A stretch of 64,000 bases of DNA, taken from positions 37,076 to 101,075 of the forward strand of contig JAKSZP010017407.1 in NCBI GenBank assembly GCA_022478985.1, in the 5' to 3' direction. Source of the stretch: Massospora cicadina (lineage: Eukaryota; Entomophthoromycota; Entomophthoromycetes; Entomophthorales; Entomophthoraceae). Below the pieces are notes generated by a model. It saw nothing but the letters and a program-made list of their open reading frames with translations, searched no databases and was not told where the DNA came from. A program made the translations under genes and the position numbers. Shown here in pieces: positions 6,322 through 45,973 of this stretch (position 1 is the first letter of the stretch; the number at the start of each line of letters is the position of its first letter).

Positions 6322-7445
6322 TGTTGAGTTTTTAGCTGATGGTGCAAGCTAAATTGATCTAACAAGGAATTGAGGATATATATACACTTTTCTAATAAAA
6401 CTCTTACTTGTAATTGGGAAGTAGCATCCCTGATAATCCTTAATAATAGCCAAATAACTCCGGTATGCTCACAGTTCTTAGGTCTACTGGCAACAACAAA
6501 TATGAGACCTTCTGTCTACATCAAAAATAGGAGATTATTCCTTTGTAATTGTGACTAATTCTCTGACAGGTACGACTGAGTTCTTCTATTTGGAAAGTAT
6601 ATATACACACAATTATCTAATAAAGATGTATAGGCAGCAGATAATAATAACAGATGGACGACAGATGGACAACAATATTTAATAAAGATAAAAATGATGT
6701 TCTCAAATGATGATTTCATTAATAAGACATTTTACAATATTATATACCTCTCAGGCATCTCCTGGCCAAACTCATCTATTAGATGAGTTCATTCATAATA
6801 TGCCAATCCTCTGATGGTCATGGTAATAATCATTAAATATCATCAAGTCAATTTAGCATATGAATTGACTAAAAATAACAATCATTTTTAGCCCAATTAT
6901 TGGCAATTTTAATCCCATTTTGGGTCAATTTTGTTTGTGAAACTCAACACCAAAATCTTCCCAATTAAAGCTACATTCATAAATTGATGAATAACAATAA
7001 ATGGCGATAAAAAGATATTTGACTAATAAACATGAAGCACCCCTAATCAGGACGTTAGCAGGCTTTTATAGCACTAAGTATGCTCATAATTGGAACGTCT
7101 ATATTCAAATGCTTAATAAATTGATTTCATTGATCAAACACAAAATTCCGCCTCAGTGCATTAGTATTAGTGCACTAATTTAGGAGGTAAATTTGGTTAA
7201 TGCCATGAGACTATTTTTCACCCAAGTAGCCTATTAATCAGGCATAATAATATTATATCATAGCTATTATTAGCTACAATAATAAGGACGATTTAAATAC
7301 AATTGAGGCGGTTTGAGATGAATCTGACTATGCAGATTATGCAGATAAGTCAGTAAAGATCAAGGGATTCATCAATGAGAGTAATCTATCAGCATTGATA
7401 GCTTTCTCAAAGGGTTAATTTTGAGTCAACCATCAAAATCCAACA
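6322..7445 (-). repeat. 3' LTR of element 1
   Basis: It matches 14911-16038 over its whole length, with most differences in the outer 300 bases and a nearly identical remainder (including the same 60-codon open frame at 7001 and 15593). It starts TGTTGAG and ends CCAACA on the plus strand. The purine-rich tract expected just upstream of a 3' LTR is present at its inner edge. Confidence 0.92.
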
Positions 7446-7458
7446 TTTCCCCCCATTT
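7446..7458 (-). promoter_or_regulatory. Polypurine tract of element 1
   Basis: On the minus strand AAATGGGGGGAAA directly abuts the TGTTGG start of the 3' LTR. That is the expected position and composition of the plus-strand DNA primer of an LTR retrotransposon. It also fixes the element's orientation as minus. Confidence 0.8.
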
Positions 7459-7497
7459 GGCTGAAAATTAAACCTGAGCTTCCTATTTTTTCCTCCA

Positions 7498-8624
7498 ATG
7501 TCTGTAAACAGTACCTCTTCCACATATCATAATTTTGTTGCTGCCCTTGATTCCAAACAACCCCATCAGTTTAACTAATTGGTCAGGACTATGCATATGC
7601 ATACGTTCCTAGGCTCCCTCCAGGAATCAGAATTGGGCCATCATATTCCTGTGCCAACTTTTAATGACGTCTACTCAGCCCAAAACCATTGTTGAGGAGG
7701 AGGTTATTTCAGACATTGAATTTACTTAAGGATTCATGGGATACAAAATTTGGTCACGCTCTTTAAAAATCTTTCAGTGGACACGTTTGGCTGCATTTTC
7801 AATTTTAAAGATACAAAATTTTTGCTACAGTCTCTTTATCAGGATGGGGACCTTCTGGCAAAGTTTATCTTCGCCCTTAATCATTTCCAAATGTCTCAGG
7901 CCTACTCTGCAGCACAGGGCTCATCAAATTTTCTGCATCAAGGTCGACTTTTTGACCAAACAAGGGTTGAATAATTGTGCTTCTTAACACCATTCATCTT
8001 ATTATGGCTTAAGAGATAACCATGAGGCCTCAAGGTTTTGTTCAAGTTGACACCTTCATAGATAAGGTTATTAGTTCCAGGTCTGCAACACTTGGGAGTA
8101 GACCTGATTATGCTATATCCTTGGGACTAAATACCCATGATGTTCAGGATGTTTGTTTCCATTCAGCCATTAGGGAGGCCTTTGAGGCTTTGCACCAGGA
8201 TAACGCAGATGACTATCTTCTGAGGATGGTCTTACTCGGCCATCTTATGCGAATTTCCATTATCAGATGCCTTCAGGCCGGTTAGTGCATGTATCCCTTC
8301 ATTGAATGGTGGAGAGCCCAAGTCTATCAGGTATGACTAATGACCCTGGATATATATCAGTACAAGACTGATTTCTTGGTTGTCTGTCTTCTCCTGGGCG
8401 TTTGTTTTCCTCCCAATTGCGGGCTTGATTGGATCATATATAATGGTTTTGTGCCCCCCTAGAAATTGTTTGCTGAGGATCAGCTACAACCAGTACATAG
8501 TGCATCTGGCTCTATGCCACTATGGCCATTTTTTTGTCACTCAGAAACTAGATTGGGCCAAATTGGTGCACGCATAGAAAGAATATGGTTTCAAGTCACC
8601 TCCTCCCTTAAAGCTGAGGAATAA
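7498..8624 (+). pseudogene. Antisense reading frame of element 1 (aORF1)
   Basis: A plus-strand frame opposite to gag-pol, about 375 codons, starting at the ATG at 7498 (52 bases inside the LTR edge) and ending at TAA 8622-8624. The first 159 codons stay in one frame with a few stops, and the second half is in another frame starting near 8022. The N terminus is MSVNSTSSTYHNF. The central block is DGDLLAKFIFALNHF (residue ~116), with ADDYLLRMVLLGHLMRI near residue 237. Element 2 has a matching antisense frame with DGDLL at residue ~123. No known domain is recognised. Antisense genes near the 3' LTR are known elsewhere (HBZ of HTLV-1, and antisense ORFs in some plant Tat-lineage elements); relation to those is not claimed. 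Confidence 0.65.
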
Positions 8625-8788
8625 AAACTCCTATAAAATTTTCAAACTTCTTATAATATATATTATCATAAAAATATTTTTAGTATACTTAATTATCATA
8701 CTTATTCTTCTTTATATCTTTTTCTGTATATACTTTTATTATCATTTTTCCCATTCTTTTTTCTTCTCTTTTTATTAGTTTTTATTAT
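8625..8788. other. AT-rich gap between convergent frames in element 1
   Basis: About 160 bases of T-rich and A-rich sequence separate the end of the antisense frame (plus) from the end of pol (minus, stop near 8789). The composition and position suit a shared transcript-end region for two convergent genes. No coding signal seen. Confidence 0.4.
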
Positions 8789-11700
8789 TTATTTTTTTAC
8801 TATAAGGTCCTTTTTCCTTTCTTGATTGGCCAAATTTCTATACTTTCTTAGGAACTTATCATGGACTTGATTATAGATATGCCTTGAATTTTTCTCCTTA
8901 ATAGTGTAGGTGAAGTTTGACGTTTTCTCAATTACATCAAATGGGCTTACCCAAAAGCGATTTAACTTGTGAGTACAGCACAAACTATGGGTTTTACAAA
9001 ATAATACCTCATTACATGCAGAGAATTTAGGAAGAACATACAAATTTTTTGATCCTTTTCATGTCAGGCCTTAGAAAGTTCAAAGTTATTTATCAAAATC
9101 AGGGCTTGCAGCTTAATTAAGGTTTTTTAAGTTGCTTGACATACTTAGAATAGATCAATTTTTGGGGTTCTTGTAGCAAAGAATACAACAACGGCGGTAA
9201 GGCTGGGTGTTTCCCATATAGAAGTTGGAAAGGAGACATCTTTGTGGACAAATGGTAAGAGATGTAGGAAAAAATGGCCAAACTGAGGAATGTACTTCAT
9301 TCAGAGGGCTTCTGAGAAGTTAGCTTCCTTAGGATATTAACAAGTATTCTATTAAATAATCTTACTGCACCATTTGTTTTTGGGTGGTATGGAGTTTCCA
9401 GAACACCACGCAATCCCATTAACTCTTTGAGCTTCTGGAGAAATACTGTGGTGAAATTTTTGCCATTATCCATTAACATGAATTGAGGACATCCGTGACA
9501 ATGAATAACTTGCTCCAGATGAATTTAGCAGTCGTTGAGGCTATTAAGCCCCAAGTAGCCCTGGCTTTGGCCACTAAGTCAAGTGATCAATTGCCACAAT
9601 AAGGTATTTGGCTTTCACATTGCTAATTGGGAGGAGTCTGACCACATGTATGGATATAGTGTGCTAAGCGAATTTGGGCCAAACAAGCTGGTATGAAGTA
9701 GCTTTTTGGAAGGTTTTCCCCCTTGTCACTATTAATAACAACTCAAGGTTTCATGGATGTTAATATGCATCAATTCTCAACAATAACTTTGCTTGAGTTG
9801 CTCCTTTGTTTTCTTGAAGCCTCTGTGACCAGTGGCCTTATGAGCAAATAAATTAAATCTGGTCAGGCTTAGGGAAGGGGAAATATATATTTTTTCCCAT
9901 CAATCAACTTGAATAGGACTCCTTTTTCAGTGTAGTTGTCCTTTCTTAATTTAGAGAATGTTCTGCACTGATTTGGGCTCATCTTCAAAAGATCAACATA
10001 CCACTTTCTGGAATAAGGAATCTGTAGGCTTATAGAGATTTGCTATGATGGTCAGATGAGACAAGCAATCAGCATTATGAGGCTTACACCAGCCTAATGC
10101 TTGATAGTATAATCATAAGCCTGCAGCTTAAGTGCCTGCGAGCCAAACGTCCTTCTGGCTCCTACAAGTTATTAAGACAGCTTAGATGCGTGATCAGTAA
10201 CCACGGTAAAATGCGGTTAATGAAGATATACTTAGAACTGTTTATAGGAAAAATAATTGCTAAACGTTCCATTTCTGTTACAGCATAATTTCTCTCATGA
10301 AATAGGGACTAACTAGCATAGGCTACTGGGTGCTTTTCACCATCTTCTCCAACTTGGGACAGAACAGCTCCAACTGTCATTAATTATGCATCAATATGGA
10401 CAATAAACCCTCAGTCAAAACCAGGATATCAAATTACTGGTGCAACTAGTAGGGATAAACAAAACCAGTCAAATGCCTTTTGGCAGGCCGAATTCTACTC
10501 AAAAGGACCCTATCCTTAAGTATATAAAACAAGAATTTCCAATTTGAGCAAAGTTGGCAATAAATTGGCAATAGTACCCAATCACACCCAAAATATACTT
10601 AGTTGTCCCGCTTGGATTTAGCCTCTTCATCTTAGATATTGCTTCCAATTCAGCCAGTTGGGACTAAAGACCTTCCTTATCAATTACAAATCCAAGATAT
10701 TCTAGTTGTCCTTAAAGAATTGATACTTTTGGGGCTTGATCTTCAAGTTTGAAGCCGCTAACCTCTTAAAGACCTCTTACAGATGTTTCAAATGTTCATC
10801 AAAGGTGTGACTGAAAATGTTGATATTGTCTGGGTATACTAGTACACATGAAAATTTGATATCGTCCAGTATGTTGTCCATCACTTTCTGGAAGGTTGCT
10901 GGACTGTTACAGAGTTCTTGGGGCGTCCTCATCAGTTGAAATAACTCCTCCTGGGTAATAATAGCGCTCTTTCTCGCTCAGCTTTGGTAATATCAATCTG
11001 CCAATACCCACTTATTAAATTCATTGCTGAGAAGAACTTGGCACCCCCAAGCCTATCTAGGGCATCATCCGTACATGGAAGAGGATAGGAGTCCTTTTTT
11101 GTAATGTTGTTGAGCTTCTGGTAGTCAATATCAACGCTGTTGCTCCCATCTTTCTTTTTTACAATCAGAATTGGGGCAGCCCATGGACTCTTGGATAGTC
11201 TAAGCATACCACATTAAAGAAGTTCCTTAATCTCTTTTGATAAAACCTCCTCAGCAGTTTTTGAATATCTAATCAGCCTTAATTGGATAGGTAAATGATC
11301 CCCAGATATCTATCATATGATTTACTATTCTTGCGCATCCCAAGTCAAAGTCGTCCTTGGAAAATATTTCACGGTATTTCTCAAATAATGCTTGGACTCA
11401 GTCCTTCTCCTGTTCATTTAGTTCCCCTAAACAGCCATAGGTATGACATTATGAACATAATGGAAATCATCAGGAAGTCCTAGCTCATCTAGGGTCCCAA
11501 ACTTCTGAAATGATTCAATCTCCGTTATAGGAATTAAATGTATATATGCTACCACCTGGTGCCTTTTGATAAAAATGAGCCGATTCTGCATGTTTGTGCA
11601 GATTATAATGATTTCATGATGCCCAGAAATAATTATCCCAAGTGTTAAGCTATGTTAGAATTGAGTTTGGGACCAAGGTTGATAAACTTTGCCATAGAAT

Positions 11701-12300
11701 CCTTCTAGGATTTGAACTGTTAGCCAAGTTGGGACTTCAGCCTGCATTCCAGAGTCCAGTGTTATTTCCTTTTTACTCAAAGGGGTATGCCCTTAGACTC
11801 ATGGATTTGCGTTGGTAGGGGCTTGACAAAGCTATAATTTAGAGTAATTGAAGGGGATTATTTCGTTATGATAGGCCAAATTAATAAACTCATTAGGCTT
11901 TTTCAGTCCCAATTTCGCGTTTTTTGTATAGTAAATTGGGATGGTTTGGTTCATGATGGTTAAGGTGTCATCCTTATGACTAGTAACCACTCCATTTTAT
12001 CTCATAAATTTGGTACCAATAAGGACCTCATAGTTCTGATTAAGCAGAACTATATCCAGAGTAGATACTACTATAGATCCAAACCTTATAGGTAAGGCAC
12101 TATATGCCCCAAGTGCTCTGGTGGTATGTGTTCCCGCAGTGCCATATTATTGATCGTGGACAACATCTAGAACTATTCCCACCTCTTTACCAACTTAGTG
12201 CTGATGATATTTAAAGGAGTGCCACTGTCAATAATGGCCCAAACACAGACCTTATTAACAGTAATATCGGCATAAGTACACTCAGAGTATGGTTTGGAAG
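8789..12300 (-). pseudogene. pol: Element 1 pol (protease, RT, RNase H, integrase), broken
   Basis: The protease shows an intact IIDSGTPLNIIS motif (catalytic D codon at 12229-12227). RT has SPWAAPILIVKKKDG and FSAMNLISGYWQI (11180-11000), where the usual D of MDL is N. The catalytic YLDD site reads YPDN (near 10840), so this RT is dead. RNase H follows with VGAVLSQVGEDGEKHPVAYA (10380-10300). Integrase has HKATGHRGFKKTKEQLKQSY (zinc-binding, near 9830), MDNGKNFTTVF (near 9480) and YHPKTNGAV (9390), where the expected catalytic E is replaced. The C-terminal module is VSPFDVIEKTSNFTYTI and NQVHDKFLRKY, ending near 8789. Many frameshifts. Confidence 0.85.
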
Positions 12301-12639
12301 TGTTTATTAGGTTATTAGATTCAGAGTTGCCAAACTAAAAGTTTGATTTGAGGCAAGATCAGATTTTAGGAAGTTTTCCGCCAGAGTCTGCATGGGGATT
12401 GCGGCCTGTACTTCCTTTAAAGAGGGCATAAGATGGGAGCAAGTAATATGGGGATCAAGGCCATGGTACAAAATCGCTTCACTTATGGTTTAGCCACCTC
12501 TATTTGGGCTTCTTCTGAAGCTTCTCTTGGCTTTAGTACTTTCCAGGATCTGGTTGTGACCATATGTACATCATAGGCCATAGTATAATGCAAAGATCTT
12601 TGGCAATTGAGTCTAATACAAATAGTGTTTCAGGATCAA

Positions 12640-14700
12640 GAGGAATGTTATACTATGTAAGGTGGAAGTAGAGCATTCCGCCTCTACTCTACCTGTCCTT
12701 TTCCCAATTCTGTGTTCTTTCCAACTTTAAAAGCCACATTAACTCAAAGTTTTGCGTCCATTCAGGTATAACAATTATTGGAAAAGTGACTCTTTGCCAA
12801 AACGATGGCAAGTGATAACGTTGGGCTTAAAATGTTCATATTTCTGGTCCTTAGCGTTCCCATTTTTCTCCTGATCGTGACTTGTACTATTATTTTCTGT
12901 AAAGGATAAACCCACTGTTGGTTGTTTGCTAATTTGGCGCATCAAAACTTCTTGAACAGCGGCGTAAGTAGTCCACAAGTCTGTTTGTTTCCATATTGCT
13001 ATTAAAGGCAGGAATCATGAATCATTCCAAATCATAATAGAGCTTCACGGTGTGTTCCATAGCAATTTTTTCATAGAATTTGGTCATAATATCTGATCTG
13101 GGGAGCACTTGGGCTTCATGGTAAAAACGGTCAGCATATTCCTTAATGGACTCATTGAGTATCAACTCAACATTCAAAAGCTCTGTCTTTTGGGTTAAAA
13201 GCTTTTTGGGCAATCAAAATCCTCAATGAAGCCTTTTTGGCCTCATCATAAGGCTAAACTTCCCCTAAATAGGGCGTTACAAGGTCTACGCTGTACAAAT
13301 CCAAACGATTGATGAGAGCTGCTGCATTTGCATAATCAGACGCTCCTCTCATGGCCTTCTTGAAAAGCTTTAAGAAGGATTAAATATTGACTTCTTTATT
13401 AAATCCTAGAAAATTCAGCGGTTTAAAATCATCTCTGCCTGAGTCCCTAACAGGAGAGGCAGTTTCTCTTCTCAATTTTGACCAACTAAGGGAGCCTTCA
13501 GGCAAAATAGGATGTTTTGAGTGAATCATATTGGGCATAGAGGTCAGTACTCATGAAATAGTTTGTGCATTTGACATGTCTGTTCCATAGACTTCATCCA
13601 CTTGTGATAATCTTCAGAATTGCTCAATTCTGTTTTCTGAAATTGGGACTGATGCGGCTTCTGAAGTACAACTTTGCATGCTTTTGGGGCCGCATCTTCA
13701 TCCTTCCCTCCACCAAGGTTGGTCGCACACTTGCAAATATTAATCTTAAGAGTCTCCATCTCTTTATTAACTTGAGCCAGATTTGCTTCAGACAATTCCT
13801 GTTGGGACAAAAGTGCCTCCATTTCTTCCAACATTCACTTCATTCTGGTATTAGTGAGCAATAGTCAGATCTCCATATTATTTTTCTCATTAAATAAGAT
13901 TGTATTTGAAGTACAAAGTTCAGAAATAGTTGACCATATGATAACTAACTCGGCCTTAATGTCTGAATTGTCTAGTTGGTATACTGGAACAGGGGGTAAC
14001 TGGGCTAAAGCCTTAATATCCCTTTGAGTAGCAGCAAATTTGGCATAGATGTAGTCTTCCAATCTGACATATCTTTATTCTAACTCCTGGAGGTTTTTCA
14101 TGAATCATGGCTCTGCTGTAGGAGATTCTCTGTACTGGATGCTAAGTAATGGTACTGTGTTTCAAGTCTGAAGCTTTGGTTGGTGATATTCCGCTTCCAC
14201 TGACCCAAGAATTCAGAATTGATTAGCACTTCTGTTGCTATTATCGGGACGCCTTCATTAATCTGAGCTAACAACTTTACAATCCAACCATGGGCCCCTG
14301 TTGCAGCTCCAGTGTTTAAAAGAATTGGTTTGCGCACTTCTGAAAGGCATAATCCAGATTCTCTCTAAAAAGCAAGATCAGGACAGCTGTTCCTCATCTT
14401 AGTCACGGTTAACGTGGAAAAATCAAGATTTTGACGTGCAAAATGTAATTATGCATGTTTGGTAGCTAGCTGCGCAAAGCTGACAAAATATTCATTTGTG
14501 ATGGCCTGATTTTCTGTAGTCTTTGGCCCAAAGCAGCCATTGTTGCTTCTCTATACTTTTGATAAATCTCATTCTTCAGGGCTTGGTCCTTCATATAGTA
14601 AAACAGACCAAAGCTTAGGTCAATTGCTGAAGACCCAACCTGGAAACCTTGAAACAAGGTTTCCAATATTTACTTAATATTGGACAAGGTAAACTCAGCT
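12640..14700 (-). pseudogene. gag: Element 1 gag, broken
   Basis: Reading right to left: an N-terminal part (14666-14466), a central part predicted to be coiled coil (13834-13700, with LLSQQELSEANLAQVNKEME), then a capsid-like block with NVELILNESIKEYADRFYH (13150-13090) typical of retrotransposon Gag. A degenerate zinc knuckle near 12800 reads CHRFGKESLF, where the second Cys and the His are replaced. Disrupted by several stops and frameshifts. Equivalent order is seen in element 2. Confidence 0.75.
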
Positions 14701-14898
14701 TGAATAGATGGTAATGTTGGACCTGTTCCAGTCAATATTAAATCTAGTGATTAATTGTTCTTATCCTCATTGTTGATACAACTTGATGTAAAATGTTCAA
14801 TAAAGTGAACAACACGTGTTTCCATATCATTATTCATGTACTTTTGGCAAATTCTGAAAGCAGATCATCCATTTCATATCAGGTAGTTTGTATTTTGA

Positions 14899-14908
14899 GT
14901 GAGCAGCA
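14899..14908 (-). promoter_or_regulatory. Candidate primer-binding site of element 1
   Basis: Two bases inside the 5' LTR the minus strand reads TGCTGCTCA. This differs by one base from TGGTGCTCA in element 3 and resembles TGGCGCTCATGG in element 2, which also sits two bases from its LTR. It is probably a decayed tRNA-primer site (TGG to TGC). Confidence 0.45.
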
Positions 14909-14910
14909 AA

Positions 14911-16038
14911 TGTTAAGTTTTTTTGTCTGATGGTACAAGTTAAATTGACTTAAAAAGGGAATTGATGATATATATTCACTTTTTCTAATAAAACTCTTAC
15001 TTGTAATTGGGAAGTAGCATCCCTGATAATCCTTGATAATAGCCAAATAACTCCGGTATGCTCATAGTTCTTAGGTCTACTGGCAACAACATTTATGAGA
15101 CCTTCTGTCTTCATAAAAACAGGAAATTATTCCTTTGTAATTGTGACTAATTCTCTGGAAGGTATGACTGAGCTCTTCTATTTGGGAAGTATATATACAC
15201 ACAATTATCTAATAAAGATGTATAGGCAGCAGATAAGAATAACAGATGGACGACAGATGGACAACAATATTTAATAAAGATAAAAATGATGTTCTCAAAT
15301 GATGATATCATTAATAAGACATTTTACAATATTATATACCTCTCAGGCATCTCCTGGCCAAACTCATCTATTAGATGAGTTCATTCATAATATGCCAATC
15401 CTCTGATGGTCATGGTAATAATCATTAAATATCATCAAGTCAATTTAGCATATGAATTGACTAAAAATAACAATCATTTTTAGCCCAATTATTGGCAATT
15501 TTAATCCCATTTTGGGTCAATTTTGTTTGTGAAACTCAACACCAAAATCTTCCCAATTAAAGCTACATTCATAAATTGATGAATAACAATAAATGGCGAT
15601 AAAAAGATATTTGACTAATAAACATGAAGCACCCCTAATCAGGACGTTAGCAGGCTTTTATAGCACTAAGTATGCCCATAATTGGAACGTCTATATTCAA
15701 ATGCTTAATAAATTGATTTCATTGATCAAACACAAAATTCCGCCTCAGTGCATTAGTATTAGTGCATTAATTTAGGAGGTGCAATTTGGTTAATGTAATG
15801 AGACTATTTTTCACCCAAGTAGCCTATTAATCAGGCATAATAATATTATATCATAGCTATTATTAGCTACAATAATAAGGACGATTTAAATACAATTGAG
15901 GCGGTTTGAGATGAATCTGACTATGCAGATTATGCAGATAAGTCAGGAAAGATCAAGGGATTCATCAATGAGAGTAATCTATCAGCATTGATAGCTTTCT
16001 CAAAGGGTTATTTTTGAGTCAACTATAAAAATCTAACA
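14911..16038 (-). repeat. 5' LTR of element 1
   Basis: Direct repeat of 6322-7445. It starts TGTTAAG and ends TCTAACA on the plus strand. For the minus-oriented element this is the promoter-bearing 5' copy. An ATATATACACAC-type stretch and AATAAA signals are present, but no promoter can be assigned with certainty. Confidence 0.92.
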
Positions 16039-23277: not shown

Positions 23278-24163
23278 TGTTGAGTAGTTGACTGGACCTA
23301 ATCATCAGTTATTCGATGAGGACATAATAATGTTAACATGCTTAATTTATTATGGATCATATCAAGGATATCAGTGATTATGGATCAGAAATATCTAACG
23401 TTTATGCAAAGCTTGGGATCCGTGGCCTAGTGATTCCACTTAATAATATTTGACTATGATGACATGGGCCCAGAAGCTTTGTTGTTTAATCTGGATTCAA
23501 TAGTAATAGTTGGATAGATGACTCAGACATGAGGCTTTGTTAATGTATGTCAAAATTAGTTTTTAATGTCAATTAAGTTTTTGATCGAATTATTTAATAA
23601 TTAGCGGTATGATTTGCCTTGGCATGTGCTGCTGATTGCTTGAGAAGAGCATCAGATCAGCTATTTGCAGATGCGTCAGAAACGCTGTCTTGTGAATATT
23701 TATGAATTTGACACTGACCATTGGGCTATGAGAGATGCCCTGAGTCAAAAGAAATGTAGACCCTTAAATGAACTTATTATATGACTTTTAACCAAGTGCA
23801 TTGAAAATGAGGCGTCATGGGTAAGATGTGGTAAACATTGAGCCCTATAAATTATCTTCAATTTGATACTAATAAATTACAATCAAATATTACCACAATT
23901 TCATAGTTTAATCTATAAGCTTTTGTGTATTTAATACTTTACATTGTTTTAAGTCAAGAATTTACTTGGGATCAGAATGATCAGGGCAGCGTGCCATTGT
24001 CCAAGTAACAACAGAATAATATGGCTTCAAGTGTTATTATCAAGGAGTTATATCTTAACTATTGTCACCATTTGGTTTATTGTTGCCAAACAATAGACAC
24101 TCAAAATCCACCATACCGCAGAAGAAGAACCAGCCATCCAAAGTAGGCCATTAAAATTCAACA
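23278..24163 (+). repeat. 5' LTR of element 2
   Basis: Starts TGTTGAGTAG, ends AATTCAACA. Direct copy at 32273-33152 with visible divergence, clearly more than between the LTRs of element 1. Confidence 0.9.
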
Positions 24164-24183: not shown

Positions 24184-26280
24184 ACGCAGAGGGTGACCGC
24201 ACTGGGCAGGGGAGCAATCCCAATCAATTATTCAGAACCATTACTAGGCCCAATAGGAATACTGATGTAAATGTGTCCCAGATTAATTGCAATGATGTAC
24301 CTATTTTTACCTACCTCAATGAACCCATTTCACCTGAAGAGCTGGAATTTCTCGAACATCAGTTGTTATGAGGGTATCAAATGGGACAAGGGCCTGTGAA
24401 CAATAGTAGAAATCCTTTTTGTCACCAACAACAGAAAGATTTGTTGTAGATGAGATATCTAGATCATCATCAACTGAGTGTAGCTCAAATCCAAAACAAT
24501 TTAATTTGGATAGATAATATCGCCCAATACTTAATTGAATTTGTACATCTCACCTTCGGATATTCAGATGAAAATTTCCCACCATCACGCAGCCATTAAC
24601 AATTTGGTAAACTTCATATGCAACTCCAGCCAGGCGGGCCAAACCTTGAATGAGCAATTAGAAGAAAACTTTGCTGAGGTCCATTCTAGTTTGGAGGCGA
24701 ATTATATTCTAGCCACTTGGGCTAATGGCCAGGTAGCAGAATTAGCACAAGAGCTAAATGTCAGATTGCATCCCATATTTAGAAATTTCTTAGAGGAGAG
24801 GTGTTATAAAATTTTGAGTTAGCAATATCACTCAGACTTTCATTAATGCTTCAGAGTTCATAAGGCTTAATCATTAAGCCCAAGAGGCGCAATTAAACCA
24901 TAACAATGAATTTCATGATCAGTATCAATGACTGAGCACCAAAATTTTGCAGATGAAGGATGATTACGCCAAGAAAATCAACTACTGGCGAATACAATAT
25001 GAAGGCCAACGGGCGAAGATTGAGAAAATTCAAGACTCTATTGATCATTTTAATTGACAGATAAATAATCTTAATAAGGATGTTACCGCTATTAATGAGT
25101 CAAACAATATTCTTCATGGAGAAGTAAAACAGTGCAAGAAGGCGATTAAGGAAAAGGACCAAGTTATTTCCACCTTGCAACTACAAACTACTAGCTTGAA
25201 TGAGGAAACTGCGAAATCAAAGTTAAAAAAATTAAATCGTGTCAATTGGGAAAATGAAATTAATGATCAAATCTGAGCTTTAGATGATGGGCGTTGCCAG
25301 TGTGCCACAAACCATTCGACTAAAAATCTTTCAAATATTATGAGGATGAAGCTTCAGATTTAGCTACTGATACAGAAACTGGGCCACATCAATAAATGCC
25401 TAGCAATATGGTTGCTTTTGCCAACCTCAACACTTCAACCCATGGTGCAGTGCCTCAGCGCCCTAGTACGCCTGGCTCAAGCCAACAAAGAAGTAATTGT
25501 GATAGCCATGGATGGGAAAGCAATAATTATAAACCAGCAAACCTGCCTGTTTCTTAAATGAATGGAAGTAAAACCACATTCATTAAACGTTTTGAAATGG
25601 CCATGTATGGGGCCAGTGACCATAACAAAGAGGCCACTATGATTAACTTCTTGGATGAGTGTAGCATTGAGTTGATTATGCCTCAAATTGATGAAAACTC
25701 AACCTACGCTGAAGTCAAAGAGGCTGTGCTTCATAATTTTGAGGTCCAGAAAAAAATGTTAACTAGAAAATCTACGTTTATGAACACTTGCTTTAAGAAA
25801 GATGAATCAATTGATGAATTTGTGGATTAATTCTATCATAAAGATCAAGTTCTCCTAAGAGAAAAGGCTATGGACAAGTTTGACGCTAGATTGCACTAAA
25901 ACATGCAGTACAACCTTACCAAAATTTGTCAAACACTTTATTGCCTGCTTTTGTGCAAAAAACTTGCAGCATCTGAATTAACTGATTATTTGTGCAGATG
26001 TTCACAAAATTACGGCCCTCCTAATACTGGGTACAGATCAGGCCCTGCTGCCTCTGCTGGAAAACCCTTTAAAACCAATAAGAAGATTGACAGTAATCCG
26101 CCTGTGAAATCTGATCAAAGATTAAATACAAGGGCCCCACGCCCAATGAATTAGATTACTTGCTATAATTGCAATCATGAAGGACACTTTGCTTCTCAAT
26201 GCCAACAGTGCAATGTCAATGTAGTCCTTCCTGATAACGCACAGGAGGAGGAAAAAGAACAAGCACTTTAGATGCGGGAT
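24174..26280 (+). pseudogene. gag: Element 2 gag, broken
   Basis: Start MAGNAEGDRTG at 24174, overlapping the primer site. Follows a long predicted coiled coil in several frames (24640-25270), e.g. EEKDQ-like heptads with GEVKQCKKAIKEKDQVIST near 25120. The capsid-like block (25558-25900) has ATMINFLDECSIELIMPQ and KDESIDEFVD. A CCHC knuckle is intact: CYNCNHEGHFASQC (near 26160; C-X2-C-X4-H-X4-C). It matches element 1 Gag in order and shows several in-frame stops (e.g. after DEFVD and before ITCYNC). Confidence 0.8.
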
Positions 26281-26639
26281 GCTCTATTGTGCTGGAAGCA
26301 CCAGTACCACCTGATCAACAAGAATACATGGCTACAGGGCCCCGTTTAACAATGAAACAAATTCTATTTTACTATCAAATGAAGATTCTATTAGTATAAA
26401 TGCGGTAACTCGCTTTCAGAGTAAAGTTGTCATACCTGAAGCCTATGAAGTAGTCACTAAACTGTATGTGCAACAAATACTTGAGAATATGCCAGCCAAA
26501 GGGCAGAGCAATGCAGCAGATACCCCAAGCTTGAAAGGGGTGAATATAGCTATGCCAATCGACACATTCTTTAATGAATGTCCCAGTATAGGAAATACTC
26601 TGAAGTACACTCTTAACTCTTTAAATTTCTTGCCATCTT

Positions 26640-29600
26640 CACTTAGTAAACTCTATTGATTCTTACTACTCTAAGTGCACTTAAGTGGACATTCTGGTCA
26701 ACAAGATCAAAGTTGTAGCTATTACTAATAGCGGAGCACCTGTAAAAGTTGGTTCCACAAAGTTGGTAAAGAAATTGAAAATTGCTCTGGACATTGACCA
26801 CAATTGGGAATATGGGACCATGGGCCTCAACAGCACTAAGAGTGAAAGAGCTTACAGCGCCTTGCCACTGCACTCTGGAGCTTTGATTGTAGCTGCACTC
26901 ACAATAGTGCTTCCAAACGCCAATTATGACATATCAATTGGAACTAGTTATTTAAGGACTTATGGGATCTCATGCATTATAAAAGAACATCTTAATGATA
27001 TTGGGTCAATTACTTCCGATTTATTACTTTTGTGACAATACAAAGCCCACGAGCCATCACAGAAACTTTATCAATATATCTTATGCTGATGAATCAATAC
27101 CAGTAGGATATACTCAGCAGGGAAATAAAAACCGCCCCATGCCAACTGCCATAAAATGAAATTTGAAAATACCATTATGTGTGAATAAGTATGTGACAAA
27201 GCTACAGGCCATCAACTGGTTATTAGGACTGGGACAACGCTAGATATTCCAGAAGGACTATACATGGAGGTTGTATCCCCATTTAATCATTATCAAATGA
27301 AACCTAGTGTGGCGCCTGGAATACTTATACCAGGGTACAGGGAAATTGTTGTCCTATTAGAAAATTGATCATCTGAAGTATTAAGGTCAATAAATATCAA
27401 GTAGTCACATTCTTACATCTGTTTCCAAGGGACAAGTTAAAATCATCTGTCAAATTTGGTGACTTATCTGAGTTAAATTGAATGACCAAAAACCTTGGAG
27501 AACATACTGTAATTCCTCGAGAATCATCTACCAGATTATCAGAGCAACAGAAGTATGAAGAACTAGAGTTGTTAGAATGATAATTCGAAATTTTCGCCAA
27601 AGATGACCAAGATTTCGTTGTTAAAAAGGAGTACAGCATTTTTTTGACACCGGGGACCTTGTACCTATTAGAATGAGGCCAATCTGGTGCCCCAGGGCTA
27701 GCGACGAAATTAGTCAGAGATGAGCTAGACAAATTGCTTATAAGTAGACTGATTGTCCCTCCAAAAGCCTGCAGTCCAGCCCAATTTTAATTGTAAAGAA
27801 AAAGATGGCAGCAATCAAGTTGTGATTGATTATTGATGCCTCAATGCCATTACATAAAAAGATTCATATCCATTTCTCATAATTGCTGATGCTCTGGACC
27901 ATCTGGGAGGGGCAAAGTATTTTACCGCAATGGACCTTATCTCAGGATATTGGCAAATTGAACTGCCTCAAGAGGAGCAGAAAAGTGTGTGATAATTGCT
28001 TTTCAAGGGTTGTTCCAACTGATGATCATGCTACAGGGGCTGTGCAATGCTCCAGCAACCTTTCAGCGTGCAATGGACACAATTTTAGGGGCCTTAAATT
28101 ATCATGCATACTGGTGTACCTGGATGATATTAATTTCTTTTTGAAAGCATTTTACAAACACATGGAGCACATTGACCAAGTGTTCAAATGGCTGTTATAG
28201 GCCAATCTGAAGATAAAACCTAGAAAATGTCAATTCATCAAAGAAAAATTGGAATACCCTGGGTTCATCATTGTTTTCAAGGACTTTCAGCCTCAACCTC
28301 AAAAGGTAGAGCGATTAAAAAAATGCAACCTCTGACAAATATGAGGGATGTTCAAGTATTCTTAGGGTTGGTAGGATTCTATCAAAGGTTCGTAGAAAGG
28401 TTTGTGAGGATTGCCGAGCCCCTATACAATTTACTACAAAAAGGAGTTCGTTGCTTCTGGGCAGATGAGTGCCAACAAGCATTTGAGGCTTTGAAAACCA
28501 AAATGAGCATGGCACCTGTCCTCTGATATCCAGATTTCAGCAGGCCTTTTATCATACAAACTGACGCCTCATTGACTGCAATTGGTGGTGTGCTATCTCA
28601 GATGGGGATGATGGCGAGGAGAATCCAGTCACTTATTGCAGCAGAATGTTAAATAAGCATGAGCGTAATTATACAGTGACCTAGCAAGAATGTTTGGCTG
28701 TAATCTATATTTGTAAACAATTTTAGGCTTACACTCATGGCACCAAGTTTCAAGTAGTGACGTATCACAGCTTATTACAATGGCCCCACAATCTCAAAGA
28801 GCCTGAGGGAAAATGAGCATGCTGGGATATGGAATTACAAGTGTATGATTATGAAATTATTCATAGAGTTGGAGTGGCCCATCAAAATGCAGAAAGACTA
28901 TTGCAACTTCCTATTATAGCTGTCCTGAGAAGTTTGGCCGATGAGCTTTATAAAAATGATTAATTAAAATTATAGAGATGAGCCACCTGAAGTACAAAAG
29001 GTAATTAAAAAAGCAATCAATGACATTGAATATTGAAATTAAGTTTTATACAAGCTCAAGCCTGAGGGGAAGTGTAGAGTTTTCCCAAAACCTTCCGACT
29101 GAATGGAGATTATTACACAAGCACACAAGGCTGTTGAGCATTGAGGATTAACCATGACGCTAGAATTAATTGGATAAGTTAGTATTGGGTTTCACATGAT
29201 TTGATATTTAAAATGTGCTCAATAAATGTCATTCATGTCATATTGCAAAGCCTATGAAGTCAGATGTGAAATATCATTTGATCAAACCATATGGGCCTGG
29301 CATAATGTGTTGATTGATGTAGTTGGCCCTTTGCCTGTGAGTAGCCTAGGCAACAAATACATAATTGTTGCTATCAGATATCTGGCAAAATGGGTGGAAG
29401 TGAAAGCAATTTGAGACGTCAGGGCTCTAACTAGTGCCAAGTTCATTATGGATAATATCTATGAGAATGGCTGCCCACAAAAAAAATCTTGACGGATAAA
29501 GGCATGAATTTTACTGCCCAGATGGTATAACGGTTAAATGAGTTGATGTCTATAAAAGGAGTGTTGTCAACTCCATACAATCCTGATACTAATGGTATGG

Positions 29601-30137
29601 TAGAACGAGTGAATGGCACTCTAGTTGGCATACTATGAAAAAATGCAGCCTCAGCGCTTTCACAATGGGCTACTTCCATTAGTGCTACAATGTTTACATA
29701 TAATATCAGCACCATAGCAGCACAGGTAACTCTCCGTTAAACTTCTGTGTGGTAGACAGACCGCTATGCCTCCATTATTATATTCAGTACTCAGTTCAAC
29801 TAAAGCAATTAACCCAAATAATTATGTTGAGCAACTAGCGAAGACCCTAATCAAGTTGCAATCTGAAACCTATCAAAACGTGATTAGTCAAAAAACTAGT
29901 CAGAAGAGCTATAATGGTTGTAAATGAGCTGCGGTGACTAATAGTAAGGAAGGAGACTTAGTAGTATATTGTGACACTCATAGCGCAGGCCATGCGCACA
30001 AGATGGCCTTGCTTTGGAAAGGTCTGTTTATTATATTGGAGAAATCATCCAAAGATGTATATACTATTAAGGATCAAGGCAGCTGGATTGTGAATCAAGT
30101 ACACGCTAAGTTCCTTCATCCATATCATAAAGAATAA
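26640..30137 (+). pseudogene. pol: Element 2 pol (protease, RT, RNase H, integrase), broken
   Basis: The protease (26685-27035) reads AITNSGAPVKVGSTKLV: the catalytic Asp of DSG has become Asn. RT has YFTAMDLISGYWQIELPQ (27910-27970), LQGLCNAPATFQRAMD (28030-28080) and an intact ILVYLDDIN (near 28110). The thumb is QVFLGLVGFYQRFVERF (28350). RNase H includes IIQTDASLTAIGGVLSQ and VTYHSLLQW. Integrase retains LIDVVGPLP (29310), LTDKGMNFTAQMV (29490) and [11 protein letters not shown] (29590), and ends with a GPF-like module IVNQVHAKFLHPY and stop at 30137. Numerous frameshifts and stops make it inactive. Confidence 0.85.
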
Positions 30138-30430: not shown

Positions 30431-30484
30431 ATAATAAGAATAATACAAAAGGAAAAATAAAAAAGAAAATAAAGTAAATATCTA

Positions 30485-30945
30485 TATATATAATAAATAT
30501 AAAAGGGTGGTTAGCCTAGAAGATAAAACTGCTTACACCCTAGTGCAGGTTTTGAGTTCAAAATCTGTACTGGCTAGAAAAATTTTAAGTGTGGTATATT
30601 TGTCCTAAGGTCAACCCCACCTCAAATATTTTATATATAATAAATATAGAAGGGTGGTTAGCCTAGAAGATAAAACTGCTTACACCCTAGTGCAGGTTTT
30701 GAGTTCAAAATCTGTACTGGCTAGAAAAATTTTAAGTGTGGTATATTTGTCCTAAGGTCAACCCCACCTCAAATATTTTATATATAATAAATATAGAAGG
30801 GTGGTTAGCCTAGAAGATAAAACTGCTTACACCCTAGTGCAGGTTTTGAGTTCAAAATCTGTACTGGCTAGAAAAATTTTAAGTGTGGTATATTTGTCCT
30901 AAGGTCAACCCCACCTCAAATATTTTATATATAATCAATATATTA
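30485..30945 (+). repeat. Three tandem 147-bp tRNA-like (SINE-like) units
   Basis: Unit starts GGGTGGTTAGCC at 30505, 30652 and 30799, an exact 147-bp period with almost no differences between copies. Each unit holds a good RNA polymerase III A box (TAGCCTAGAAG) and a weaker B-box-like GAGTTCAAAATC at tRNA-like spacing. It ends GTCCTAAGGTCAACCCCACC then AT-rich linker, similar to the LINE/SINE 3' tails of this window. Near identity implies recent amplification. Confidence 0.75.
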
Positions 30946-31007: not shown

Positions 31008-32218
31008 TCAGAAATTTGATGACTCATCATCACTGGAACTAGGTAACCCTTCTTTGGGAGGGGGAGGAGAGTTTGATCATACTGGGGAAGCCTATCGCTG
31101 AATCAGAGAATTGCAAATCTCATACAGGTCTTGACTCTCCAGACCCTGTCATAGATGCGCTAAACCCAAAGAGGCTCAGCACCAGGCATGCTGGCCTTGT
31201 TGGCTTAGAAAAGGCCATCAAACTTAAGGGAAAGACCATTGGAAAGGACTTTGGAACAGGAGAGAAAGGTTCAACTCAGGAGTAAATGCTGCATAAAGGA
31301 AGATATAGTTGGCAAGAAGGCTTTCAAGGCAGGGTAAACTGGGGGAGGAACACTTTTATGCACAACATCTACAAACGGGCCTCATCTAAAACCCTGTGCA
31401 TGTCAGGCATGGTTTCAGTGGGGAGTGAGGAAGGAGGGAAGCAAATGCATGCATCCAGAAGAGCCATATGTGGGACATGCTTCTTGGGAAGTTCTTTTTC
31501 CAGAATTTTGCAAAGGGCTAAGTATAACACCAGGAGGATGCGCCAATCTTTTAAATCCAAGTCTAGAGGCCCAACAGGACGTGATAATTGGTATGTACTG
31601 AAGCAGGTTCACACCAAAGCCTAGAAACTGAGTTAGAAAAAATAAGGGCCTGATTGGCCTCAAAAATATTATATGCGGTAACCTCAGGCCCATTAGCAAG
31701 TACAGATGACAAAAAGCATTAATAATCTCAAACATTAAATTGAGCTCAAAGCCCAACAATGCCGCACTGCCTGTGCATAAGGAGGAAGCAAGATTGTTGG
31801 AAGAGAAGATGTGAAAGAGGGAAAACAAGAAGTCAGGAAGGAGATCCCCATCTGAAGTGAATTGGTGCCAATATGGATTTCTTGGGGCTGACCAGATTCA
31901 GAAGCCTGAAGAGTTAAAGAGAGAGTCAAAGGAAAATCTCACTCAATCCATTGGGATGTTTGTAGGACAGTACTCGAAGCCAAGTAGTCTGTTTAGATTC
32001 ATCAATAATTGGTGAAGTCGCAGCAGGATGCAAGATGAACTTTCAGGCACCATGGAAGTGTAGCTGGTCAAACCAGCTTGAGAAATTGTGGGCAACATGC
32101 CCAAGTTGACCATAGCGCGTTGCATGGACCTGCTCAGTCTTAAGAAGACTCATTTGTCTGATGCAGAAAGGATATTGATATATTGTTAATATTTTGAAGA
32201 TTATGAGAAGTTAGACAT
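31008..32218 (-). pseudogene. Antisense reading frame of element 2 (aORF2)
   Basis: Opposite to gag-pol, about 403 codons, ATG at 32218 (54 bases inside the 3' LTR edge) to TGA at 31010-31008. It begins MSNFS and has SDGDLLPDFLFSLFHIFSS at residue ~123, matching the DGDLLAKFIFALNHF block of aORF1 at residue ~116. LKDWRILLVLYLALCKI near residue 223 parallels aORF1 residue ~237. The C-terminal part is Pro/Ser-rich and ends PSSSDDESSNF. Several stops and at least three frameshifts. No known domain recognised; conservation between two elements argues for a former gene. Confidence 0.65.
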
Positions 32219-32256
32219 TGTGACCCAGAAAGAAGAGTACCCGCCACTTTTATCCA

Positions 32257-32272: not shown

Positions 32273-33152
32273 TGTTGAGTAGTTGACTGGACCTAATCAT
32301 TAGTTATTTGATGGGGACATAATAATGTTAACATGCTTAATTTAGTATGGATCATATCAAGGATATCAGTGATTATGGATCAGGAATATCCGACGCTTAT
32401 GCAAAGCTTGGGATCCATGTCCTAGTGATTCCACTTAATAATATTTAACTATGATGACATGGACAGAAACTTTGTTGGTTAAGTTGGACTTAATAGTAAT
32501 AGTAATTTGATAACTCAAACATGTGGGCTTTGTTAATCTATGTCAAGGTTAGTTTATAATGTCAATAAAGTTTTTGATCGAATTATTTAATAATTAGCGG
32601 TATGATTTGCCTTGACATGTGCTGCTGATTGCTTGAGAAGAGCATCATATCAGCTATTTGAAGATGCGTCAGAAACGCTGTCTTGTGAATACTTATGAAT
32701 TTGACACTGACCATTGGGCTATGAGAGATGCCCTGAGTCAAAAGGTTGTAGACCCTCAAACGAACTTATAAATGTTCCTCTTGCCAAGTGCATTGAAAAT
32801 GAGGCGTCATGGTTAAAATGTGGTAAACATTGAACTCTATAAATTATCTTTAAGTTGATACTAATAAAGTACAATCAACTATTACATTGTTCACAGTTTA
32901 AACTATAAGATTTCCTGTAACTAATAATTTACATTGTATTAAGTTAAGAATTTACTTGGGATCAGAATGATCAGGGCTGCGGCCATTGTCCAAGTAACAA
33001 CAGAAGAATATGGCTTCAAGTGTTATTATCAAGGAGTTATATCTTAAATATTGTCAACATCTGGTCTATTGTCACCATTTAATAGACGTTTGAAACTCCA
33101 CCATGACGCAGAAGAAGAACCAGCCACCCAAAGTAGGACAAAAAATTCAACA
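32273..33152 (+). repeat. 3' LTR of element 2
   Basis: Direct repeat of 23278-24163, TGTTGAG to TTCAACA. Confidence 0.9.
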
Positions 33153-35586: not shown

Positions 35587-38500
35587 TCAGAATGAGACCA
35601 ACTGGCAGCAATGGGGTGGGAGGTACCCAAACATCCACGCTTGAAAGTGGTTCACTAAGTGCGACTGGAACTGGCGTACAGCTTCTTGGAGGGTGGGTGT
35701 GGAGCCTGAGATGGCATCCAAGACAATCGTGTGGATAGTGCACATAGTGATTGCGACTACCAAGGTACAGAGGGAGGATGGAAGAGGGGAAGCCATGGAT
35801 AAAGCAAACATGTCCTTAGACAGGCTGAAGGGCTGTGCCTGATCCTGGTGAAGCAGACGTTGCACCTCACACCATGTTGCTTTATATGGGGGGCACTTTT
35901 CCAGGCGGTGAACCAGCGTTCCATACTGGCCACACACGACACAGGATGAGTGCAAAGTGTTAGAGCGTTCAGCAGTACAGTATACCCATCTTAAGCAGCA
36001 CCACACATGGAAACAAATATGCGGCTGCAGAAGAGGGTGGTGGGCATACTTCCAAATGGCTTTCTGGGTATCAAGGGGTAAGGGGATGTCCATCATGTCC
36101 AGGTAGCCCACTCTGGCCATGTTAGGGGATCACATGGGTATCACTATGTTCAGAATAGGAAGTCCTTGTACTTTATGGGTGAACTGAGGAGAGGGACGCC
36201 CCCTCTGGGCGGTGTGCCCACAGATGCAAATTCTCCACTCAGCGCACCGCATGGAGAGGAGGATCCTTTTGAAGTGGGGCGGCGTCCCATTTGGGCCCGC
36301 TGCAGAAGGATGTGAGGAAAGGTCTTCAACAGAGAGTGGGGGTGGGAAGGATTGGTGAGGCCCAGGGCGTGGGAGAAGTTGGAGCGGGCTGTGTGGGACC
36401 AGTGCTGGGCTGAGATTGTAGGGTTAGTAACAGCCGTGATCCAGATGCCAAGGATTTTGGCAGCATGGGTCTCAAAGTTGAGCAGACCAATACCACCACA
36501 ATGGCAAGGGCCAAACATGACATACAGGCGCACTAGCAGTGGGCGGCACAACTAATGCCACCCTTACAGAAGGGCATATATTGACTTGAAGAAACACAGG
36601 GAGAAAGAAATGGCGTGGGCCCAAACCAAACTTTAGAGAGGAGCATAGAGTTGGATAGCACAACCCTGCCTTTAAGGGGGGTCTGACGGGCTCTGAGGGA
36701 ATCTATAGATTTGTAACGTTGTCTAGGATATGGTTTTCCATCACCAATGAGACGTACCCTCCTGCCTCCAGCCACACCCCCAAATGGCGGACAGGGCAAA
36801 CGGTGGGTCTTGGCACAAAGGGGAGCACAAGCGGGGCAGTGTGGGGTGGGCAGGGTAAGCTAATTCGTGCGCTAGCTGATGAGGCGGGTAAGAAATGGGA
36901 TGCTGGGGCCCAGCAGGCTTGATACCGACCAAGGAGAATAATTTTGGTTTTGAAGGCGTTGAGTGCAGCATTACTTATCCTGAAGTAAACCTGGATAGTA
37001 TCTTAAAGCGCGCGTGCATCATGATTGTTAGCACCCCAACCACACAATCATCAGCAAATGCCAACATCTTGACAGGGGCTTGGCCTTACACGTGGACCCC
37101 AGTAAGGCGGGCATTTACATTTTGAGGAAGTGGGTCGAGGATGAAGTTATACAAGAAAGGGCTAAGAGGGTCCCCTTGGCGCAGTCCCCTTTGAGGTCGG
37201 ACTACATCCGTGAGGAAGCCAGGACCATGCACAGCCATTGTGGCGGATTCCATTAGCAACATCACCCAATTGATGAAGCAAGGGTGGAGGCGGAATTTGC
37301 AAAGGCAGGCTCTTAGGTATTCCCAGTTTACTCTATCATAGGCCTTCTGCTGGTCTAAAAATACAAGTGCTCTAGAAGCTGTGGATTGACAGACGTTGGC
37401 TACAGTGTGTATATTGTCCCAAAACGACCTTTTGGGTATGAAACCAAATTGTTCAGGGGAAATTAGGGAAGAGGCAGCAACCCCCTAGACGGTTAGCCAT
37501 GATTTTAGTAAATTTTTTTGTGTCTGTGTTAGTGAGAGAAATGGGGCACCAGTTGGGGCACCAGTTGGAATGCCTCGTGCCTTACAGGCAGGAGGCGCGT
37601 TTCCAGAAGGCATTGGTTAAGGGAGGCAAGCAGCAAGGAGGATAAATCTTTGAAATACTTCTTATAGAACTCATAAGGGATGCTGTATGGACCTGGGCAT
37701 TTCCTATACAGTGCACCACGAATTTTGGACCAGAGTTCATCCTGAGTAATAAAATTTATCAACTATAGGAATCAGGAAATGGTGTGGATGTGTGCACTTT
37801 TGAGAAAAGTTGCCATTTTGGCCGGCTGAATTGGTTTGTATTAGTACAGTTTGGAGTAATAGTTTTATATTTTGATCACCACTTTAGCCGGTGTATCTGC
37901 GATGGAGTGGTCTGGCCTTTGCACCTGTGTGCAGACCAAACTCTGGAACGGTGCAAAGAATTTTATAAAAAAGTAAGTGGAGCACATGTCGCCCGCTGTA
38001 ATATGTTTAGCTTTAAACTGAACACAAACCTGATGCTTGTGTTGTCTCACCCAGTGTGCTGAGGCAGGCGGCCACTTCCGCCCACTTGCAACCCCAAGCT
38101 AGGCTGTATCACGCAGCGGGGACGTTGGACTCAGGTGGTCCAACTCTGCCAGTGTGTGAAAAATGATCTCTGAGGTGGCATGTGAGCGGCGGGAGGAGAG
38201 GTGGTGAGCCTGGCGTATTGTGCTCACCTTGAAGGTTGACCAGGTGAAAATTGGATCTGCACATAATGGTGCAACAAACTCCAGAGCCGAGGTCACAGAT
38301 TCTACCCATGAGGAAAATCTTGGTGACACATTTTGGCAGGGCAATTTTGCACCATTTTGGTACCTGGGCTGCTGGGTGTGGATAAATGGAAGGAAATTAA
38401 TATCATCCTGTGGTCAGAGAAATTGATTTTTGTCATGGTGAAGTGGGAAATTTGGGTATGAGATTTAAGCAGCGTGAGGATAAGGTTGATGCAGGTCATG

Positions 38501-39065
38501 GACCTTAACTTGCCGTTGTGTACATGGAGCATGACATATTAGTGAGTAGCGAAGCATGGCGCGGCAAGGTATTGAACAACCCTAGGGTGGCTTTGAGAAT
38601 GCCAAGTTCAACGTGCCCCAGTGGGGGTGTAGTCAATAAGGGCCAGCAGTCTGTGTATGGGTTCATCCAGCAGTTCATGTCTCCAACAATGAGTGGGTCA
38701 GGGGTAGCAGAAGGGAATTGACTGTCAAGAAAAATTCCTGACATTCTCGCACAAAGGTTGGGACATAAACGTTAAAAACTGTGGGCACTTCGTTGTCCCA
38801 TAAAAAGGTGACAACAAGGATGTGGCCATTTTGGTATGAATCTGATGAAATAAATTTAAAAAATACTGTTCTTTTGAACTAGCACCCCACAGTGCTCAGA
38901 CCAAAAGGAGAGGGAAGGGAGGAGCATGGTTTTCCATGATTCCTCAGAACTGCGCAGACAGTGGGTTTCCTGAATTGCCAGGATGTCCACGGGTAAATTA
39001 TTTTGTAAAAAACCCAGTTTTCTAGCCTGGGACGGCGAGGCCTTTAGTCCAGCGATGTTCAACAT
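35587..39065 (-). pseudogene. LINE A ORF2 (endonuclease and reverse transcriptase), broken
   Basis: The N-terminal APE endonuclease shows LNIAGLKAS, DILAIQETH (39060-38960), IVGDMNCW (38680) and FSDHRM (38420), the E, GDxN and SDH signatures. The RT has AFLDQQKAYDRVNWEYL (37370-37320), LRQGDPLSPFLYNF (37180-37140) and an intact AFADDCVVGV (near 37050). The C-terminal zinc motif is CVVCGQYGTLVHRLEKC (near 35930). Final residues NHFQAWMFG match LINE B. Many frameshifts, so inactive. Confidence 0.85.
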
Positions 39066-45862: not shown

Positions 45863-45973
45863 GGGTCATACTGCAAGTATGGGGCTGATTATCCAGATTG
45901 GTTCCAGTGTGTTAGTCGGCAGTCTTAGTACTGGATTTGTTCGGTTTCTTCTGGCTCAGATTACTCCATGGAG

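What the first reader, a model, noticed from the sequence alone, without database searches (positions are those of the whole stretch)
7498..8624. Conserved antisense gene next to the 3' LTR in several Ty3/gypsy elements
Elements 1 and 2 each carry a ~375-403 codon frame on the strand opposite to gag-pol. Both start MS, both place a DGDLLxxFxFxLxH block at residue ~116/123, and both have a Leu-rich block at ~237/223. Elements 1 and 2 are otherwise well diverged, so the shared block suggests a real protein, not a chance frame. Antisense genes driven from the 3' LTR are known (HBZ in HTLV-1; antisense ORFs in plant Tat-lineage elements), but I recognise no known family here.
Basis: partly seen in the sequence, partly recalled or inferred. 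Interest (0 to 1): 0.9.

Follow-up and report, generated by a model that had tools for sequence, protein, structure and literature searches.

The report
Antisense gene in fungal retrotransposons
Two distantly related families of jumping genes in a giant, probably fungal genome carry, on the strand opposite their usual genes, remnants of the same apparently undescribed gene, whose role is unknown.

Summary
Both antisense frames exist, start MS and share the DGDLL block, but each has 12 stops, and indels put parts of both (the 'Leu-rich blocks' too) outside the real frame. Genome copies show the real one. In 20 element 1 copies, chosen by DNA, one antisense frame has 109 stops in 6198 codons (other five 316-508) and no majority stop in 320 codons. 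In 9 element 2 family copies, chosen by integrase alone, it has 35 stops in 2947 codons, dN/dS 0.42, third-position excess (p 0.003) and ATG in 9 of 9. Uninterrupted pieces of the two families match as profiles (P 1.3e-7). This is a real antisense gene between pol and 3' LTR, probably older than the family split, with a TATA-like box before its ATG. The host is most likely a fungus. No known protein family matched. Antisense genes at this place are known from plant Retand/Grande elements and fungal Boty: known kind, apparently new protein family. Four of 14 integrase-selected copies share a deletion of the gene, so it seems dispensable in cis. No copy seen has it whole; transcription and function are inferred.

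The parts
7498..8551 (+). Element 1 antisense gene (broken copy), ATG to the family stop at about codon 353; a second one at 8622-8624 is a stop in all 14 copies that cover it
   Evidence: majority stops of the family frame at codon 353 (75% of 20) and 377 (14 of 14), with codon 283 at 50%
7843..7935 (+). DGDLL block of element 1, in the family frame
8013..8282 (+).
   Evidence: element 1 pieces match the element 2 family domain, P 1.3e-7
6322..7445 (-). 3' LTR of element 1
14911..16038 (-). 5' LTR of element 1
8840..13834 (-). gag-pol remnants of element 1 (25 stops in 998 codons of matched blocks)
31010..32218 (-). Element 2 antisense gene (broken copy), ATG at 32218; in 9 related copies the gene ends somewhere between codons 340 and 404
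31415..31897 (-). 160-codon open stretch of element 2; holds the DGDLL block; its later part is outside the family frame
32248..32254 (-). TATA-like box 36 bases before the element 2 ATG, between gene and LTR
   Evidence: 27 of 32, 9 of 9 and 11 of 20 copies in three sets
32273..33152 (+). 3' LTR of element 2
23278..24163 (+). 5' LTR of element 2
25558..30125 (+). gag-pol remnants of element 2 (28 stops in 1026 codons of matched blocks)
31216..32165 (.). Counterpart of the stretch deleted in four related loci that lack the antisense gene
   Evidence: L072, L076, L077, L082; the edges in L076 differ by up to about 24 bases

Best explanation
An accessory gene of two related Ty3/gypsy families, transcribed opposite to gag-pol from a core promoter in the roughly 50-base spacer beside the 3' LTR and reading towards pol. 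It encodes a protein of about 340-400 residues with an N-terminal part, a DGDLL block and a roughly 100-residue, probably helical domain. Shown: the ancestral open antisense frame, its conserved start, codon-level constraint in the element 2 family, homology of the domain between the two families, and its loss by one shared deletion in four related loci. Inferred: transcription, translation, and action in trans as a regulator or helper of the element (for example tuning sense transcription, RNA export, or escape from host silencing), so that copies without it can use the product of others.
For: Stop depletion and no majority stop over 320 codons in one antisense frame of 20 DNA-selected element 1 copies, against five other frames and an LTR control. 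Block permutation in window-copy coordinates: majority-stop criterion 0 of 2000 for E1 and P 0.005 for E2; stricter 80% criterion 0.0085 and 0.0175; stop density 0.005 and 0.0215. Nine integrase-selected copies: ATG 9 of 9, dN/dS 0.417, diversity by codon position .087/.070/.111, p .0026 (.0006 without CpG). Twelve copies picked by the domain, most for long open frames: dN/dS 0.381.135/.0995/.191. Profile match of the domain between families P 1.3e-7, crossed comparisons 0.51 and 0.6. The domain frame matched at all 150 places scored in each of two genome searches with 8847 and 2770 first-look candidates. TATA-like box in three sets. Stop level close to that of gag-pol and integrase remnants.
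Against: No RNA or protein data. No copy that I looked at has the whole gene open; the young integrase-selected lineage has stops at codons 23 and 233 in 8 of 9 copies each. In the element 1 family dN/dS is not distinctive (0.583 against 0.569-0.731 in the other frames). The complementary sense frame shares third positions and is only a little higher (0.458 against 0.417). N-terminal homology between families is weak (P 0.029). The structure model is poor (pLDDT 62, pTM 0.34). The TATA-like pattern was chosen after looking at element 2 copies, and by eye the window copy of element 1 lacks it. Four of 14 integrase-selected loci do without the gene. No homolog was found elsewhere, so conservation across species is untested.
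Confidence: 0.6

Rival explanations
1. Chance frame: the sense strand here is purine-rich non-coding DNA, so its complement looks like an L/F/S-rich protein with few stops.
Against: The other two antisense frames have 316 and 397 stops against 109. Codon-position diversity in integrase-selected copies and homology of the domain between families are not expected from composition.
Confidence: 0.04
2. The region works as DNA or RNA (packaging, export or polypurine-linked signal, or a source of antisense RNA and small RNAs), and the coding frame is secondary or a relic.
For: In L009, L015, L019 and L020 the bins of 7322-8521 keep 68-83% identity while LTR and integrase bins are at most 66%. Antisense transcripts can regulate retroelements without coding (discussed in PMC7264820, passages seen).
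Against: Variation depends on codon position, second positions slowest. Four related loci share a deletion of the stretch, so it seems not to be an essential cis signal.
Confidence: 0.15
3. A captured host gene carried as a passenger.
For: Its orientation and separation from gag-pol fit a captured gene; such transductions are known (PMC7264820, passages).
Against: No homolog outside the elements was found (the first two used partly off-frame pieces, and the host genome was not searched apart from the elements). It is in two families whose reverse transcriptase blocks share about 45% identity, so it is old and kept.
Confidence: 0.1
4. An antisense membrane or envelope-like protein.
For: Element 1 copies have a hydrophobic stretch around codons 302-320 (mean Kyte-Doolittle 1.97), present in an uninterrupted in-frame piece of L011.
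Against: Element 2 copies show no comparable stretch (maximum 1.19, counted in the frame of the window copy); env-like genes described in plants are sense (PMC7264820 passages).
Confidence: 0.07

Closest known systems
[quoted passage not shown] TRP28 domain PF04195)
   Same: Same place and orientation; widespread in a lineage; [quoted passage not shown] Grande gene23 is reported to have its own promoter (reference title and passages).
   Different: Host here most likely a fungus; no PF04195 match in any piece scanned; reverse transcriptase not of Tat type by eye (recalled, not tested); the pol-3' LTR gap is about 1.4 kb in element 1 and 2.1 kb in element 2 against 2.9-6.6 kb in Retand.
brtn, the additional antisense gene of Boty-like Ty3/gypsy elements in Botrytis cinerea
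   Same: Fungal Ty3/gypsy element with an extra antisense gene, listed with the pol-3' LTR antisense ORFs (PMC7264820 passages; reference title in PMC8365987 passages).
   Different: No brtn sequence was at hand, so homology is untested; the host here is a 1.47-Gb genome of unproven identity.
HBZ of HTLV-1
   Same: Antisense gene at the 3' side of a retroelement (PMC11963269 and PMC7264820 passages).
   Different: No bZIP or other Pfam match here; promoter not shown to lie in the LTR.

Membership tests
Antisense accessory ORF between pol and 3' LTR (positional class) | Lies between pol and 3' LTR, antisense to gag-pol | tested here: met
   Window elements. In 34 element 2 family rows chosen by the antisense protein (two of them the same place), an LTR edge lies on the N-terminal side in 30 and an integrase match on the other strand in 28. 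In 14 integrase-selected loci the gene follows in 10, element 2 itself included.
Antisense accessory ORF between pol and 3' LTR (positional class) | Coding constraint, present across families | tested here: met
   element 1 family alone inconclusive by dN/dS
Antisense accessory ORF between pol and 3' LTR (positional class) | Antisense transcript | not testable with these tools
   No RNA data held
Retand / TRP28 (PF04195) antisense proteins | TRP28 domain | tested here: not met
   No PF04195 among matches up to E 1 for the 12 pieces of A2, 13 of A3 and 8 element 1 pieces
Retand / TRP28 (PF04195) antisense proteins | Flowering-plant host | tested here: not met
   No Chloroa_b-bind match in the genome; Chitin_synth_1 at 2 places, 268 and 265 bits; that this family is typical of fungi is recalled
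Boty brtn | Sequence homology to brtn | not tested
   brtn sequence not available in the tools
HBZ-like | bZIP domain | tested here: not met
Ty3/gypsy LTR retrotransposon (host element) | LTR pair with TG...CA ends; gag, then protease, RT, RNase H, integrase in that order | tested here: met
   LTR pairs and ends; Pfam matches RVT_1 0.0019, RT_RNaseH_2 0.005, SH3_Tf2-1 0.0063, Peptidase_A2B 0.073, all below curated cut-offs, the pieces being broken; colinear homology of elements 1, 2 and 3

The most novel reading that the evidence does not exclude
A previously undescribed, helical protein family, encoded antisense from its own promoter in Ty3 elements of a giant-genome fungus, acts in trans as a shared helper; a deletion subfamily without the gene lives as a cheater on the product of its relatives.
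Probability: 0.3. Interest if true: 0.75.

Novelty: new member of a known kind. Interest (0 to 1): 0.55.

Why it matters
Antisense accessory genes beside the 3' LTR are described mainly from flowering plants and one fungal element, with unrelated proteins and no established role. A new family, old enough to be shared by two diverged element families and with a natural deletion subfamily as contrast, makes it possible to ask what such genes do: compare copies with and without the gene in one genome for age, spread and small-RNA load. It also shows that annotation from single broken copies can miss or misread such genes.

Tried and rejected
Reader-frame searches: Pfam with the element 1 frame (X at stops) and the element 2 160-residue stretch gave nothing; protein search of that stretch, 30 candidates, none E<=10; profile A1, 6547 candidates, none; structure of A1 pLDDT 43. 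These queries were partly outside the family frame, so one search repeated the search with in-frame uninterrupted pieces (744 candidates, none E<=10). That search sees only proteins of 0.55-1.75 times 139 residues, so full-length relatives could be missed.

dN/dS in the coordinates of the window copy was uninformative, and integrase in 9 of the same copies showed no constraint either. One search had all loci turned by one rule although some matches lie on the other strand; it is discarded. A 9-copy majority-stop map for element 1 lost the frame and shows eight majority stops inside the gene (codons 211-316); the 20-copy version is used. From the 34 element 2 rows two were dropped before alignment (one the same place as another, one truncated), leaving 32 including the window copy.

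A plant host (suggested by CAG-to-TAG decay) was rejected: CTG did not share the excess and no light-harvesting gene was found. Genome size, Ty3 and LINE load resemble Massospora cicadina (1.488 Gb, 19,694 contigs against 16,968 here; passages of PMC9584336 and PMC10515909), but the species is unproven.

Full report
What is in the window. Element 1 has LTRs 6322-7445 and 14911-16038 and gag-pol on the - strand; element 2 has LTRs 23278-24163 and 32273-33152 and gag-pol on the + strand. Their gag-pol blocks are colinear and homologous (one RT block 45% identical) but broken: 25 stops in 998 codons and 28 in 1026.

Finding the real frame. A DNA search of the 1.47-Gb source genome with the element 1 stretch scored 40 of 830 candidates (41 matches, 73-81% identity apart from itself), and 20 loci (L001-L020, the window copy included) were fetched. 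In columns occupied by most copies, one antisense frame stands out. Over 320 codons it has 109 stops in 6198 codons and no column with a majority stop, against 316-508 stops and 12-21 such columns in the five other frames. In the same alignment majority stops come only at codons 353 (75% of 20) and 377 (14 of 14); codons 283 and 148 are stops in 50% and 35%.

Controls. The integrase frame in 9 of those copies has 17 stops in 1063 codons; the six frames of the LTR have 149-223 in about 2072. So the antisense frame decays like a gene, not like non-coding DNA. Permuting alignment blocks 2000 times (window-copy coordinates) never gave a frame with so few majority stops for element 1, and gave one in 0.5% of trials for the protein-selected element 2 set; other criteria gave 0.5-2.2%. 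dN/dS is not distinctive in the element 1 copies (0.583 against 0.569-0.731), although third positions vary more (p 0.025; 0.008 without CpG). Integrase in 9 of the same copies shows no constraint either (0.745; 0.58-0.80), so this set mostly records decay.

Unbiased test in the element 2 family. Fourteen loci (L069-L082) were taken from the 40 scored of 2671 candidates by integrase DNA alone. In 10 (one is element 2 itself) the antisense gene follows on the other strand. In the 9 others the ATG is present in 9 of 9. Over codons 1-330 there are 35 stops in 2947 codons (other frames 103-192), dN/dS is 0.417 (other frames 0.458-0.796), and diversity by codon position is .087/.070/.111 (p 0.0026; 0.0006 without CpG). 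Integrase in the same copies gives dN/dS 0.222, third-position excess p 0.019 (0.39 without CpG). Results against: codons 23 and 233 are stops in 8 of 9 copies, and integrase has 4 majority-stop columns, so this young lineage (integrase 96.1% identical) is itself defective and was presumably mobilised in trans. The sense frame with 0.458 shares its third positions with the antisense frame, but has 11 majority-stop columns against 2.

Further sets. A protein search with the 160-residue stretch scored 150 of 2617 candidates. The 32 copies aligned from it give dN/dS 0.431 and .223/.182/.278, but were chosen by protein similarity. With an in-frame 139-residue domain piece (L035) 150 of 8847 candidates were scored, E<=5.5e-60, 71-85% identity apart from itself, 39 of 150 without stops. 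Twelve of these, eight of them fetched for long open frames, give dN/dS 0.381. The element 1 domain piece (L009) scored 150 of 2770 at 56-70% identity apart from itself. The start codon is ATG in 25 of 32 element 2 and 13 of 20 element 1 copies. A recurrent stop in element 2 copies sits at a codon whose main states are CGA, CAA and TGA (32-copy set: TGA 19, CAA 8, TAA 2, other 3; 12-copy set: CAA 6, TGA 3, CGA 3); CAA and TGA are the two CpG-decay products of CGA, and CpG sites decay fastest in the element 1 set (194 of 625).

Homology between families. Uninterrupted pieces only: element 1 domain (A4, 9 pieces) against element 2 domain (A2, 12 pieces) P 1.3e-7 over 97 columns; N-terminal parts P 0.029; crossed comparisons 0.51 and 0.6. 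The DGDLL block lies between them in both. One gene, inherited since before the two families split, is the simplest reading; exchange between families is not excluded.

Promoter and loss. A TATA-like box lies mostly 31-36 bases before the aligned ATG in 27 of 32, 9 of 9 and 11 of 20 copies (shuffled means 0.39, 0.035, 0.7), in the spacer between LTR and gene; the pattern was chosen after viewing element 2 copies. Four of the 14 integrase-selected loci (L072, L076, L077, L082) share one deletion, window equivalent about 31216-32165, that removes most of the gene and leaves integrase and LTR sequence in place. They are 86-92% alike in that region. Their sharing of one junction implies that elements without the gene were copied, so it seems not to be needed in cis.

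What it is. No Pfam match above cut-off, no solved structure for the domain by sequence, and no relative in the protein collection at E<=10 (limited to similar lengths and shared words). A structure model of the domain is all helical but poor (pLDDT 62, pTM 0.34). The genome has Chitin_synth_1 at two places and no light-harvesting match, hence most likely a fungus; which one is unproven. [quoted passage not shown] passages). In the searches for earlier reports I saw listings, and passages of a few papers; the only fungal case met there was Boty, and the Entomophthora genome paper's text holds no 'antisense'. Papers outside that library, and most listed papers, were not read.

Reading. Shown: a real, old antisense gene. 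Inferred: that it is transcribed from the spacer, makes a protein, and serves the element as an accessory factor in trans, as proposed for plant antisense ORFs. Its biochemical role is open.

Noticed in passing
L072, L076, L077, L082 (window equivalent about 31216-32165): Four element 2 relatives share one internal deletion removing the antisense gene; they are 86-92% alike over integrase end, junction and LTR.
   Followed up: partly
window 7322-8521 against L009, L012, L015, L019, L020: The antisense segment stays 68-84% identical in copies whose LTR and integrase bins are at most 66% alike, suggesting exchange of this module between element families or stronger constraint.
   Followed up: partly
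window 6322-16038 and L070-L081: Young-looking copies (element 1 LTRs 96.5% alike; integrase 96% alike among 9 of L070-L081) carry broken gag-pol or shared stops, as if defective lineages were mobilised in trans.
   Followed up: no
window 30476-30942: About three tandem copies of a 147-base unit between integrase and the antisense gene of element 2; no such array in the other 53 loci scanned (L001-L020, L022-L054), two of which have other short arrays.
   Followed up: partly
window 36000-46700 (-): LINE-like fragments: a reverse transcriptase match at 37086-37484 (RVT_1 8e-18) and a 349-codon open piece at 42811-43860, the latter not tested.
   Followed up: no
L068 880-2376 (+): A 498-codon open frame lies antisense to the chitin synthase gene, a reminder that long antisense frames alone prove nothing.
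   Followed up: no
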